Source: Eubacteriales bacterium
Lineage (GTDB): Bacteria > Bacillota > Clostridia > Monoglobales > UMGS1388
Length of the DNA stretch: 41,119 nucleotides
Assembly (NCBI GenBank): GCA_029004515.1
Contig: JAQVYH010000012.1
Coordinates: forward strand, 1-41,119
Direction of reading: 5' to 3'
The stretch's first letter is position 1. Every line of letters begins with the position of its first letter. Made by a program: the position numbers and the translations under genes. Shown here piece after piece: positions 54 through 10,126 of this stretch. The notes beneath the pieces are model-generated. The model was not told where the DNA came from. It worked only from the letters and a program-made list of their open reading frames with translations, and searched no databases.

Positions 54-923
54 GTGCACAAAGCAAACGGAACAAACGGGAACGAGGCTACCGGGTGCAT
101 TTTGTATCAAACTCGTGTTCTTCTCCAGAAACGGTTTACAGTTGACTTTTTAACGAAAGAACTGAGGGTAAATAACGGCGAAGTACCCCAATATTATGTG
201 GAAAATTCGCACGAAGCCATCATCGCCCCGGAGGAATTTCAAGCGGTTCAGGATGAGATGGCGCGGCGTAAGGAACTGGGCAGAGCTTACAGCGACAAGG
301 CTTTTCACAACAAAATCTTCTGCGGCGATTGCGGCGGGTTTTACGGCCGCAAGGTCTGGCACTCCACGGATGAATACAAAAGCGTGATTTTTCAGTGCAA
401 CCAGAAATTCAAAAACGAAGATAGGTGCAGGACACCGAAACTGACCGAAAATGAAATCAAACAGCGTTTTCTCACCGCCTATAATGAACTTATGGGTAAC
501 AGAGAAAGCGTTATCACCGACTGCGAACTTATTAGGCAGACCCTTTGTGACACGGTAAAGTTGGATGCCGAGATGCAACAAGCACAGGATGAAATGACGG
601 TTGTCGCAGGACTCATGCAGGCTCATGTAAAAAAGAACGCCTCGGTTGCTCAATCCCAGACCGAATATGCTGCGGAAACCGAGCGGATTGAGAAGCGCTA
701 CAATGATGCTTTGGAGCAATACAATGCTCTTGAAGCGGAAAAGGGAAAGAAGATACGCAAGAACAAGGAATTGAAGGCTTTCTCCAAAATGCTGAAACAG
801 CAGCCTTTTGTAGTTGATGAATGGAACGAGCGCCTTTGGATAACACTCCTCAATAAGGCTACAGTCTACCATAATGGTAGAATCGTGTTCCAGTTTAAAA
901 GTGGTGCGGAGATAACGGCATAA
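54..923 (+). pseudogene. Serine site-specific recombinase, C-terminal remnant
   Basis: The frame encodes the C-terminal half of a large serine recombinase. From about base 115 it reads LLQKRFTVDFLTKELRVN, a typical recombinase-domain stretch. A zinc-ribbon follows (FCGDCGGFYGRK, then FQCNQ and RCRTPKL), then a coiled coil (about residues 165-235) and the usual C-terminal block ending FKSGAEITA. The N-terminal resolvase domain with the catalytic serine is missing. The first ~20 codons are not recombinase-like; they are the repeat at 56-127, so the frame begins in repeat sequence that abuts the truncated gene. It could be the end of a gene starting before the window, but the repeat junction argues for a deletion or insertion scar. 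Such recombinases move integrative elements; this one should be inactive. Confidence 0.72.
56..127 (+). repeat. Left copy of ~70 bp direct repeat
   Basis: Bases 56-127 match 5877-5948 with few differences. Shared blocks are GCACAAAGCAAACGGAACAA and, further on, TGCATTTTGTATCAAACTCG followed by TGTtCTTCTCCA. Similarity stops exactly after TTCTCCA: this copy runs on into recombinase coding sequence, while the right copy runs on into a non-coding two-hairpin unit. The two copies are in direct orientation about 5.8 kb apart and enclose the biotin operon. What the repeat is (mobile-element end, recombination site or dispersed intergenic repeat) is not known. Confidence 0.75.
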
Positions 924-6509: not shown

Positions 6510-7220
6510 ATGAAGATGAAAGATTACACATGGAACGAAACGCTGATGGAAATTGAGAAGGCAAACAACCTCGCTGAACTGTTCGCACTATGGAAACACG
6601 CGCATACTGTCGAAGATAATTATGAGGAGACGACTACCGCAGATATGGAAAAGGAATCATTTATCACTGACGGGTACATATTTGAGGACACTTACAGTAG
6701 GGTTCTTTTCGTGCTTAAAGAAGTAAATCAGCGAGGGAAATCCGGCGCCAAAGACCCGTCTGAAAGAACACACATTACATGGTATCAGGACTTCATTAAA
6801 GTAGGGGAAAATATCAACCAATCTAAGCAGCATGAAAAAATGGGGCGTATGGCGTGTTATGTTTTGGACAAAAACGAGAGCCCACTCGAAGAAGAAATCA
6901 AGAATGGACTACGCCGCTCAGCATTTATGAATTTGAACAAGCGCGGCGGCAGCAACAAAGCAGAAAAAGTAGACCCATATGCAAGAAAATATGCGGAATT
7001 TATAAAAAAACAAATATCTCTGCTCAATCCTGATGTAATAGTCTGCCTTGGCACATTTGAGCAGGTTAAGGCACTTGTGGACACAAAAGACAAGCGAGTT
7101 ATAGATATGTGGCATCCCGCTTACAGAATGTCAGGGTTGAAAAGAGACCCTCAGTGTAAAACCGACAAAAATGTTGATTTGTATATGCGTGAGTTTATTA
7201 AGCGTTTTGAAAAACATTAA
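6510..7220 (+). CDS. Uracil-DNA-glycosylase-fold protein 1
   Basis: About 236 residues. The C-terminal half has the layout of the uracil-DNA glycosylase superfamily: a first-strand motif VLFVLKEVNQRG (about residues 65-76), FMNLNKRGG (139-147), a strand NPDVIVCLG (173-181) and a final MWHPAY (200-205) in the place of the family's HPSP loop. The N-terminal block NNLAELFALWK and the MNLNKRGG segment recur in the gene at 8698, so the two are paralogues. Motif 1 is neither GEAPG nor GQDPY, so activity on uracil cannot be assumed. AGGAGG at 6499-6504 gives ATG at 6510 (5 nt) or 6516; ATG at 6507 is too close. First gene of a cluster of five, 49 bp before the next. Confidence 0.7.
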   Translation: MKMKDYTWNETLMEIEKANNLAELFALWKHAHTVEDNYEETTTADMEKESFITDGYIFEDTYSRVLFVLKEVNQRGKSGAKDPSERTHITWYQDFIKVGENINQSKQHEKMGRMACYVLDKNESPLEEEIKNGLRRSAFMNLNKRGGSNKAEKVDPYARKYAEFIKKQISLLNPDVIVCLGTFEQVKALVDTKDKRVIDMWHPAYRMSGLKRDPQCKTDKNVDLYMREFIKRFEKH

Positions 7221-7269
7221 ACGCCTTTGTGATAGAATACAGGCACAATGCAAAAGGGAGATGATTTAA

Positions 7270-8283
7270 ATGTTTAAGCAACTCAAAAATGTACTGTTTG
7301 AATATAAAAACGGACGGGTAATTGCCGTCCCTGGGAAATATGTAACGAGAATTGAAATGGAGATAGGCAACTCATTTATTTCCAAATTTAACGAAGAACT
7401 TGTGCAACGAGCGTTTTATGTAAATAGTGCAGAGTTTAGAGTGCTTGATGAGTTTTTGGATAATCCGGTTATAGATGTATGTGGCAATGAGGTTCCTCCT
7501 CCTCATATTCAAAATCCGATTAAAGATGTAACTCTTGTGTATGCGGACGGTGAAGAAGAATTATACATTATGACAAGTGGCGACATAGGATTTATCTTCT
7601 TTACATTTGGACCAGAACCGATAGCTCAACAAGAACGGGACTCCAAACAGACACTTAAACGATTGTCACAACTTTCCGACGCAGATTTAACCAAAAACCT
7701 TGAGTGTATGTCTGTTTCGGAAATTGAATGGTTAGCACTGCACATTCTTTCCGAACACGAAATATATTCTCATGCAGCATGCCACCCGCATGCATTACTT
7801 TTGATTGATTTGCTTCAACACCGTGCGAAGGTTATGAACCGAGATTTCATATGGACGCAAGATAGTCTAAAAAAATTAATCCATGTTGAAAAAATACTTT
7901 GGGACGCTTTTCATAATACTAAACGGGAGGTAACCAAATTTCTTAAGTTATCACCGATGGTTGATGTGAAAGAATTGCATATAAGGCTGGTTCCTCAAAT
8001 TAAAGAAGAAAAACTAAGAAAGTACAGTTTTAAGAAGTTGTTGTCCAAATATGATCCCTTCATTGTGGTTCGCGACGAAACTGACGATTCTTGGTTTGAT
8101 AAGTATTCAAACGATTACAACCTAATGGGTGTAAATACTTCTGCAATATTTGAACCGTTGGAAACAACGCAGTGTTTTAGTGTACAGGATATAGTTGATA
8201 TCGAATCTGTTGATATTCAGGTAGAATACCACAAAACTTATAAAGCAATGCCAAAAGAAATTGGCATTGCAAATGAAGAATAA
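7270..8283 (+). CDS. Protein of unknown function, 337 aa
   Basis: No family recognised. AGGGAG ends 9 nt before ATG at 7270. The N-terminal ~115 residues look rich in beta strands (FEYKNGRVIAVPGKYVTRIE, then VTLVYADGEEELYIM); residues ~120-270 look helical (e.g. LKRLSQLSDADLTKNLECMS). No signal peptide or membrane segment is visible, so it is probably cytoplasmic. It lies between two glycosylase-fold genes on the same strand, and its end overlaps the upstream extension of the next frame, suggesting one transcript. A role connected with those proteins is inferred from position only. Confidence 0.7.
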   Translation: MFKQLKNVLFEYKNGRVIAVPGKYVTRIEMEIGNSFISKFNEELVQRAFYVNSAEFRVLDEFLDNPVIDVCGNEVPPPHIQNPIKDVTLVYADGEEELYIMTSGDIGFIFFTFGPEPIAQQERDSKQTLKRLSQLSDADLTKNLECMSVSEIEWLALHILSEHEIYSHAACHPHALLLIDLLQHRAKVMNRDFIWTQDSLKKLIHVEKILWDAFHNTKREVTKFLKLSPMVDVKELHIRLVPQIKEEKLRKYSFKKLLSKYDPFIVVRDETDDSWFDKYSNDYNLMGVNTSAIFEPLETTQCFSVQDIVDIESVDIQVEYHKTYKAMPKEIGIANEE

Positions 8284-8317
8284 AAATCGGATTAATAACA
8301 AGGATGAAGGAAGAATT

Positions 8318-8671
8318 ATGATTTCTGCTAAAATTTGTATCGGCCCGTTTTTCTATATTGATGGTAAATTTTTAACGCACAAAATTTCTGTGGAACAAGG
8401 CGATGTTCGTGGCGACAGGATTGATAATCCTTATTCCCACGAAAAACTATATGATGCCAATTATAGTAGCGGTGATTATATCAATGTGCCACGAGGACGA
8501 GTAATTTGGGATAATGCAAGTAACAAGGCGATAATTTATATCGATACTTGCATCGAAAAAGTCGATGGAGCAGTTAAGGAAATCGCCAAGGCTTTTGGTT
8601 TGACAGATTATTTTGTAGAACACGATGAACACTATGTTTGCCCAAATTGTATGAGAAACATTTGGGATTGA
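8318..8671 (+). CDS. Small protein of unknown function, 117 aa
   Basis: The likely start is ATG at 8318 after AAGGAAG; the frame is open upstream to 8261 but overlaps the previous gene there. The sequence begins ISAKICIGPFFYIDGKF and contains PRGRVIWDNASNKAIIYIDT. It ends with EHYVCPNCMRNIWD, where CPNC could be half of a metal site. The layout resembles a widespread but uncharacterised family of short proteins starting with a GPFF-IDG motif; that is recollection, not a search result. Cytoplasmic. The next gene begins 26 bp downstream, so the two are co-transcribed. Confidence 0.7.
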   Translation: MISAKICIGPFFYIDGKFLTHKISVEQGDVRGDRIDNPYSHEKLYDANYSSGDYINVPRGRVIWDNASNKAIIYIDTCIEKVDGAVKEIAKAFGLTDYFVEHDEHYVCPNCMRNIWD

Positions 8672-8697
8672 AATGGAAATGTAATGGAGGTAATGAA

Positions 8698-9459
8698 ATG
8701 AAGATCAGCAACATCAATAATTTGGATGAACTTTTTATCGCGTGGAAAGAATTTCAAACAAACGATGGTTTATATAATGTATTAAATAAATACTGCAAAA
8801 ATATTGCCACAACCGCATTTGCTGGCGATGGCGTAGTGGATAATGTAATATTTCAAAAGACTGGTTACAAAGTATTATACATTATGAACGAGAGCAACGC
8901 TGATTCATACGTAGATATTACAGAAGACCAATCAAATTGGTCCTTTACTAAAAATTTTAATGATTTCGAACAAACCGGCGAAAAATGGAAGCCATCATAT
9001 TTACTTACAAAAATTTGTGAAATGCAAAGAATTATATTGCAAAATGAATTAGGAGTAAAGATAAATATACAGCCATCTGCACTTACTTTTTCGGTAATGA
9101 ACTTGAATAAACGTGGTGGTGGAAAGCAAATTTCTCGTTCATATTTTGAAGAGTATTTTAAACCATATGTTGAAAAACACACTGATTTTATAAAAAGAGA
9201 GGTTGAAATAATAAACCCTGATTTAATTATTTGGTGTGGAGTAAATACTTATTCGTTAAAAGGATATGTTTTGCCGGATATTTATAAAAAGAAAACTTTT
9301 CTTATGTGGCACCCATCGTATACACGGATTTCAAAAGATCACGCACAATCTAAAAACTGCATCAGCGAAGCTGCTACACACAATGCCATAATCAGAAAAT
9401 ATATAGCAGAATTTGAAATGAGGTATCATAAATACATTAATCGATACATCAATGCTTAA
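8698..9459 (+). CDS. Uracil-DNA-glycosylase-fold protein 2
   Basis: 253 residues, paralogous to the gene at 6510: NNLDELFIAWKEF near the N-terminus, motif VLYIMNESNADS (59-70), VMNLNKRGGG (133-142), the strand NPDLIIWCG (173-181) and FLMWHPSY (201-208). This order matches the uracil-DNA glycosylase fold: first catalytic loop, central strand, final HPS-type DNA-contact loop. GGAGG ends 7 nt before ATG at 8698; an in-frame start at 8638 would lie within the upstream gene. The two paralogues agree best in the fold motifs and differ in between, suggesting different targets or partners. Substrate unknown. Confidence 0.72.
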   Translation: MKISNINNLDELFIAWKEFQTNDGLYNVLNKYCKNIATTAFAGDGVVDNVIFQKTGYKVLYIMNESNADSYVDITEDQSNWSFTKNFNDFEQTGEKWKPSYLLTKICEMQRIILQNELGVKINIQPSALTFSVMNLNKRGGGKQISRSYFEEYFKPYVEKHTDFIKREVEIINPDLIIWCGVNTYSLKGYVLPDIYKKKTFLMWHPSYTRISKDHAQSKNCISEAATHNAIIRKYIAEFEMRYHKYINRYINA

Positions 9460-9530
9460 TATAATCGATTGGGCAAAGTCATTAATTTTAGACTAGTATA
9501 GTATCATTTGAAAATGGAGGAAACTAACAT

Positions 9531-10126
9531 ATGTATTTGTATTCTGATAATGTGAAGTTTATGCCATACGTGGGCGAGCATTATACCACATCAAATGTAA
9601 AGGTTATGTTGCTTGGAGAATCCCACTATGCACATCCAACCGAAGCATATAAAAAATTTACGATTGATGTGGTAGAACGTTACATCAAAGATGGCGACAA
9701 TCCGAAATTTTTCAACGGAATTTTAAGAACGTTGTACGGAGAAGTGAGTGACAGCGAGCTCAATTTCAGAATATATGTTTTTATAATTATATTCAAGAGT
9801 TTGTAGGAGAACATCATAACGACAAAAAAACTAATACAATGTGGGAAGGTGCACGGCCTGCACTTATAAGTGTTCTTGAAGAATTACAGCCTGATGCGGT
9901 TATTTGTTTCGGTAAAACTATGTATAAAGAATTGCCCCCTGATGGAAAAGCGGGAGCAACATATACTGTTGAAGAAACAACTATTCGTTCATGGATATAT
10001 ACAGTAAAAAAAGAAATTCCTGTCTTTTGCGTTACTCACCCATCATACAAAGGCGGTTTTAATGCAGAGAAGTTCCATAATGTAATTAAAGAAATTCCTG
10101 TTTTTCATAAATTTTTATGCAGGTGA
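9531..10126 (+). pseudogene. Uracil-DNA-glycosylase-fold protein 3, frameshifted
   Basis: ATG at 9531 follows GGAGG at a normal distance. The first frame gives VKVMLLGESHYAHP (a GESHY form of motif 1) and then breaks near 9768-9772. The next frame carries on with NICFYNYIQEFVGEHHND, ELQPDAVICFG and VFCVTHPSYKGG to a stop at 10126. Adding a single A near 9770 would restore one ~198-residue protein with all fold motifs, so this is a one-base deletion, a sequencing error or a programmed shift. The gene is more distant from the other two glycosylase-like genes than they are from each other. It ends against a transposase fragment. Confidence 0.7.

What the first reader, a model, noticed from the sequence alone, without database searches (positions are those of the whole stretch)
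6510..10126. Cluster of three uracil-DNA-glycosylase-fold proteins with two unknown partners
Seen: three proteins with the same motif order (first-strand loop, NPDVIVCLG-type strand, HPSY/HPAY loop) lie in one run, interleaved with a 337-residue and a 117-residue unknown. The first and second are paralogues sharing NNLxELFxxWK and MNLNKRGG; the third is a more distant GESHY type. Known: glycosylases of this superfamily usually occur singly as repair enzymes, and DNA glycosylases have been reported as phage defences. Inferred: the position between recombinase and transposase remnants suggests an accessory module, perhaps defence against phages with modified bases. This is the best candidate for an undescribed system here.
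Basis: partly seen in the sequence, partly recalled or inferred. Interest (0 to 1): 0.78.

Follow-up and report, generated by a model that had tools for sequence, protein, structure and literature searches.

The report
Mobile cluster of glycosylase-fold genes
A clostridial bacterium carries an acquired patch of DNA with three genes of the uracil-DNA-glycosylase fold (enzymes that cut bases out of DNA); their relatives elsewhere are mobile, often sit beside sensor-type regulators and swap parts of the glycosylase gene, as expected for a defence against foreign DNA, but nothing has been tested in the laboratory.

Summary
In detail: genes A, D and E (window 6510-10126) belong to the uracil-DNA-glycosylase (UDG) superfamily; A and D are paralogues. 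E is broken by a one-base deletion; a relative has it intact. The five genes are not one conserved system: A occurs alone (82% identity) in another family of the order, C-D-E occurs together in a third genome, and B has no convincing relative. The region is AT-rich and horizontally acquired; the host also has housekeeping UNG and HDG genes. The A/D family is rare (42 loci in about 85,000 species genomes, nearly all Clostridia). (1) A WYL-domain regulator lies within three genes in 14 of 50 loci; PolC-like fragments, nucleases and restriction genes recur. (2) The glycosylase is the variable part: D in the third genome is a mosaic of two alleles, exchanged over the segment with the first catalytic loop, and in two Ruminococcus flavefaciens loci the glycosylase differs between near-identical neighbours. 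(3) E relatives are plasmid cargo in enterobacteria, even on 2-kb plasmids. Best reading: a mobile, diversifying family of defence-type DNA glycosylases working like Brig1/Brig3. Activity, target and immunity are untested.

The parts
6510..7220 (+). Gene A: UDG-superfamily protein, 236 aa, A/D family
   Evidence: Pfam PF03167 3e-5; AF2 pLDDT 89.6 and PDB matches all UDG superfamily; 82% identical copy in another family of the order; dN/dS 0.31
7270..8283 (+). Gene B: 337-aa protein of unknown fold, near-orphan; not part of the conserved block
   Evidence: No Pfam match; one weak partial hit in 390 other genomes; none in plasmids, phages or IMG/VR; single-sequence model unusable, pLDDT 35.5
8318..8671 (+). 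Gene C: 117-aa protein with C-terminal CPNC-type motif; travels with D and E
   Evidence: 89% identical copy directly before D in G054; C-like genes near UDG-like genes in L044, L067, L082
8698..9459 (+). Gene D: UDG-superfamily protein, 253 aa, paralogue of A
   Evidence: BLASTP to A 3e-24; same motifs; in C-D-E block in G054
8830..9117 (+). Codons about 45-140 of D: exchangeable central segment carrying the first catalytic loop
   Evidence: In G054 this segment matches the C123 allele (0.88-0.95 nt) while the rest matches window D (0.88-0.98 nt); permutation p 5e-5
9531..10126 (+). Gene E: GESHY-type UDG-superfamily gene, broken by a one-base deletion near 9757
   Evidence: Intact 199-aa copy in G054 with Pfam UDG 9e-8; relatives on 103 plasmids

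Best explanation
A-(B)-C-D-E is a mobile, partly decayed accessory cluster of UDG-superfamily DNA glycosylases: an undescribed clostridial family (A, D) plus a second, plasmid-associated GESHY family (E). Most likely mechanism: the glycosylase flips an unusual base out of DNA into the pocket formed by the KExN loop, the NxNKRGG strand and the H(P) loop and hydrolyses its glycosidic bond; the abasic sites then stall replication of the invading DNA or are finished off by nucleases such as those co-encoded in related loci. A WYL regulator, often encoded next to relatives, would switch the operon on when it senses nucleic acid such as single-stranded DNA. Shown: fold and homology, conserved candidate catalytic residues, mobility, WYL and nuclease neighbours in related loci, allele swapping, purifying selection. 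Inferred: catalysis, substrate (a modified base of phage or other foreign DNA), immunity, and the role of WYL.
For: Fold and motifs: (E71 in 97% and N73 in 87% of 39 relatives; N141, K144, G147 in 100%; H202 in 97%). Not needed for ordinary repair: the genome has UNG (GQDPYH, C109) and a family-6-like HDG (C51). Mobility. Neighbours: WYL within 3 genes in 14 of 50 loci, adjacent in 10 (Fisher p 7e-6, not corrected for relatedness); WYL-UDG-exonuclease-DUF1643-ResIII helicase order in R. flavefaciens; PDDEXK nuclease, GESHY protein and PolC-like gene in L090; type I RM, HNH, ThsB-like TIR and DUF2779/Cas4-like genes at single loci. Diversification: mosaic D; glycosylase at about 0.56-0.60 nt identity between flanks at mostly 0.86-1.0. 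Precedent: Brig1 and Brig3 are UDG-superfamily enzymes giving immunity by excising modified phage bases (PMC11078745, PMC13160076); WYL regulators co-localise with defence (PMC9122601) and can bind ssDNA (PafBC PMC11804915, DriD PMC12340889).
Against: No meaningful PADLOC match for the window proteins (2023 library, before Brig) and most of the 50 loci lack a recognised defence neighbour. The window itself has no WYL gene beside the cluster. The catalytic acid is not invariant in the E family (GLSHY on the 2-kb plasmids). E is broken here. TM-scores to known UDGs are modest. No activity or phage data exist.
Confidence: 0.5

Rival explanations
1. An accessory DNA-damage response: a WYL-controlled base-excision set (UDG-like glycosylase, DnaQ-like exonuclease, PolC-like protein) that repairs unusual lesions in the host's own DNA.
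For: The WYL activators PafBC and DriD respond to ssDNA from damage; exonuclease and PolC-like genes recur near the glycosylase.
Against: Rare, patchy distribution; UNG and HDG already present; several PolC-like neighbours keep only parts of the polymerase domains; swapping of the glycosylase between conserved flanks is not expected of a repair enzyme with a fixed substrate.
Confidence: 0.22
2. The UDG fold is used without excision: a DNA-binding or competition factor of mobile elements (for plasmid maintenance, or to tether or shield DNA), as UDG-fold proteins such as vaccinia D4 and UdgX have acquired other roles (own knowledge).
For: E relatives are almost confined to plasmids, including 2-kb ones, and the first-loop Glu is Leu in one lineage.
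Against: A/D family keeps the acidic first loop in 97% and the last-loop His in 97%.
Confidence: 0.13
3. Passenger genes: a decaying insertion with no current function in this host.
For: E is frameshifted; B is an orphan; the five genes are not a unit elsewhere.
Against: A, C and D are open, with dN/dS 0.31-0.38 against copies in other families; relatives form regular operons. The dN/dS reflects the lineages joined, not only this host.
Confidence: 0.15

Closest known systems
Brig1, Brig2 and Brig3 defence DNA glycosylases (PMC11078745, PMC13160076)
   Same: UDG-superfamily accessory glycosylases; the Brig1 model also resembles family-4 UDG (4ZBY); often near defence genes; Brig3 is encoded with a helper protein.
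Family 4/5 uracil-DNA glycosylases and UdgX
   Same: Nearest in sequence profile and fold; similar order of first loop, NxxK strand, NPxxI strand and H(P) loop.
   Different: First loop is KExN, not GEAPG/GEQPG; no conserved cysteines for an Fe-S cluster.
WYL-regulated defence systems (BrxR, CapW; PMC9122601, PMC9122588)
   Same: WYL-domain regulator encoded beside an accessory enzyme gene in 14 of 50 related loci.
   Different: The partner is a glycosylase rather than BREX or CBASS; no regulation shown; none beside the window's own cluster.

Membership tests
UDG superfamily (PF03167) | Sequence profile match above the curated cut-off | tested here: met
   A 24.5 and E (intact copy) 32.7 bits against 24.3; D 13.7 is below, but D is a paralogue of A
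UDG superfamily (PF03167) | UDG fold | tested here: met
   Model of A pLDDT 89.6; all 50 listed PDB matches are UDG-superfamily enzymes, though distant. D and E were not modelled
Family 4/5 UDG | GEAPG-type first loop and four cysteines holding an Fe-S cluster | tested here: not met
   KExN loop, no conserved cysteine among 39 relatives
Family 1 UDG (UNG) | GQDPYH first motif | tested here: not met
   Absent from A, D, E; present in the host's own UNG
Brig-type defence glycosylase | Excises a modified phage base and protects against phage | not testable with these tools
   Needs enzyme and plaque assays
Brig-type defence glycosylase | Sequence homology to Brig1/Brig3 beyond the superfamily | not tested
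Brig-type defence glycosylase | Found in defence islands | tested here: inconclusive
   RM, ResIII, PDDEXK, TIR and HNH neighbours at some loci only
Brig3-BapA two-gene system | ASCH-domain partner that removes glucose | tested here: not met
   B and C have no ASCH or other significant Pfam match; the B model is unusable

The most novel reading that the evidence does not exclude
A WYL-controlled, cassette-swapping glycosylase restriction system: a conserved operon frame (WYL regulator, exonuclease, DUF1643, helicase or PolC-like protein) into which interchangeable glycosylase alleles or base-recognition segments are exchanged, so that the host keeps pace with phages that change their DNA bases, in analogy to swapped specificity subunits of type I restriction.
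Probability: 0.25. Interest if true: 0.85.

Novelty: new variant of a known kind. Interest (0 to 1): 0.62.

Why it matters
Phage defence by a DNA glycosylase of this superfamily was reported in 2024 (Brig1), and few families are known. If the A/D and E families are defence enzymes they add two: a clostridial one with adjoining regulators and allele swapping, and one already spread on enterobacterial plasmids (103 PLSDB records; one allele in 65 of 5,426 complete E. coli genomes), where it can be tested at once in laboratory E. coli. A naturally swapped segment that spans the first catalytic loop makes the basis of base specificity directly testable.

Tried and rejected
Five-gene conserved system: rejected; no other locus found has all five and B has no convincing relative. 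Phage-borne genes: no hit for A, B or E in phage records and none for A/D, B, C or E in IMG/VR. B as a BapA-like (ASCH) helper: no Pfam match, unusable model. B as a relative of a 190-aa protein next to C in L067: a hint only (phmmer E 0.44 in the neighbour set), not accepted. C as an exclusive hallmark: rejected; C-like genes also sit beside purA in other Clostridia without a glycosylase. Mosaic D from a chimeric assembly: unlikely, since the G054 copy is 0.88-0.98, not 1.0, identical to either parent allele and comes from another assembly. Flanking repeats or Rfam families marking an insertion: none convincing.

Full report
What is there. Five genes on the + strand, 26-71 nt apart, occupy window 6510-10126: A, B, C, D and a broken E. 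They lie between bioA (ends 5774) and a minus-strand DUF6143 gene. GC falls to 0.32-0.40 across them, against 0.42-0.46 upstream and about 0.42 downstream.

The glycosylase fold. A and the intact relative of E exceed the Pfam UDG cut-off; D does not, but aligns with A over almost its whole length (BLASTP 3e-24). A model of A built on 39 relatives has pLDDT 89.6, and the 50 PDB structures listed are all UDG-superfamily enzymes (T. maritima UDG, SMUG1, UdgX, family 4, UNG, MUG/TDG). The similarity is distant (best E 1.7e-3, TM about 0.3-0.5). The A/D family keeps D54-G55, a (V/I)LF-type strand ending in K-E-x-N, N-x-N-K-R-G-G, N-P-x-x-I and a last-loop H that is often H-P. The order resembles family 4/5 UDG (own knowledge of those motifs), but there are no conserved cysteines, so it is not a family 4/5 enzyme. 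The E family has G-(E/L)-S-H-Y, F-Y-N-Y and H-P.

Not a five-gene unit. Among 51 genomes of the order, an 82% identical A occurs without B-E in a different family (G004). C-D-E occurs in the same order in G054, another family of the class, with C at 89% and an intact 199-aa E, followed by the start of a WYL gene at the contig end. The DNA similarity begins at C and stops after E. B gave one weak partial hit in 390 other genomes. The window's genome holds a third relative on contig C123, next to a fused phosphatase-like/PolC-like gene. It also has its own UNG and HDG, so ordinary uracil and hypoxanthine repair is already covered.

Distribution and neighbours. A scan of 84,980 species genomes with one motif pattern returned 42 loci, nearly all Clostridia. 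Around 50 glycosylase loci, a WYL-domain regulator lies within three genes in 14 and is directly adjacent in 10 (Fisher p 7e-6 against other positions in the same loci); in seven of these it is upstream on the same strand with gaps of 3-55 nt. Five are related R. flavefaciens-type loci, so the independent lineages are nearer ten and the p-value is optimistic. In two R. flavefaciens loci the order is WYL, UDG, DnaQ-like exonuclease, DUF1643, ResIII/SNF2 helicase. PolC-like genes occur in seven loci, five of them within about two genes. L090 combines an A/D-type UDG, a PolC-like gene, a PDDEXK nuclease and a GESHY protein, the third place where the two UDG types meet. Single loci have type I RM, HNH, TIR and DUF2779/Cas4-like genes nearby.

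The glycosylase is the variable part. The D gene of G054 matches window D at 0.88-0.98 nucleotide identity in alignment codons 1-40 and 141-256, but matches the C123 allele at 0.88-0.95 in codons about 41-140, where its identity to window D falls to 0.53-0.70. Among 148 informative codons the pattern is one block (permutation p 5e-5). On A the block corresponds to the stretch from the DG motif through the first catalytic loop and the following helices to just before MNLNKRGG. In Brig3 several base-contacting residues (N50-E55, Y97-F101) lie in the comparable early part of the protein (PMC13160076); that equivalence is positional inference only. Independently, two R. flavefaciens loci share WYL (0.87-0.97), exonuclease (mostly 0.86-0.92, one 100-nt stretch 0.69) and DUF1643 (1.0) genes, while the glycosylase between them drops to about 0.56-0.60 after its first 35-40 codons, with one better-conserved stretch at 0.80. 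dN/dS of A, C and D is 0.31-0.38. A conserved frame with an exchanged enzyme is typical of specificity determinants in an arms race and is not expected of a housekeeping repair enzyme.

E on plasmids. tblastn with the intact E finds 103 plasmids, mostly enterobacterial and conjugative, at about 36% identity over 130 aa. One allele is in 65 of 5,426 complete E. coli genomes, with 65 of 67 places on plasmids; it lies in a small block near a DNA methyltransferase and a DEAD/DEAH helicase on an IncN plasmid, and on an otherwise different 12.5-kb plasmid. Another lies on plasmids of 2.1-3.7 kb as nearly the only cargo. The records seen call it 'hypothetical protein'. In the 2-kb lineage the first-loop Glu is Leu, so activity there is doubtful.

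Mechanism. By analogy with Brig1 (excises alpha-glucosyl-hmC from T4 DNA) and Brig3 (excises 5hmC), I propose excision of an unusual base in incoming DNA, abasic sites and stalled replication, helped by nucleases. WYL proteins regulate defence (PMC9122601), and PafBC and DriD bind ssDNA, so induction by nucleic acid is a reasonable inference. Substrate, catalysis and immunity are not shown. A damage-response role is the main rival.

State in this window. A, C and D are open and constrained; E has lost one base near 9757, and no WYL gene lies beside the cluster. The copy here is at best partly functional; more complete family members are elsewhere.

Noticed in passing
L008:2662-4191, L010:7370-9814, L044:6371-7570, L067:1534-3657, L090:1157-3370, L082:14166-14984, L091:1-1908: PolC-like proteins, several shortened to parts of the polymerase domains, recur beside or near A/D-type glycosylase genes; one (L008) is fused to a phosphatase-like domain.
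   Followed up: partly
L101 (2,059 bp), L112 (2,177 bp), L104 (3,688 bp): Tiny E. coli plasmids whose only obvious cargo is a GLSHY UDG-fold gene annotated as hypothetical protein.
   Followed up: partly
L048:6816-7196, L049:4002-4355, L050:4230-4586: A C-like small protein directly follows purA (adenylosuccinate synthase, by eye) in three genomes of one clostridial genus.
   Followed up: no
L071:3032-5209, L076:689-2866, L093:8001-9835: Two different A/D-family glycosylase genes in one locus; L071 and L076 share the order, L093 has it reversed.
   Followed up: no
L056:9340-9888, L057:9262-9810: DUF1643 with an NPSA-type motif sits in the WYL-glycosylase operon; it may be a further UDG-fold member (not tested).
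   Followed up: no
window 54-923: Part of a serine recombinase (Recombinase and zinc-ribbon domains) at the window edge, separated from the cluster by the biotin genes.
   Followed up: partly
L044:11036-12076: A macrodomain-like protein (by eye) lies about 2.3 kb from the phosphatase-UDG-PolC-C operon.
   Followed up: no
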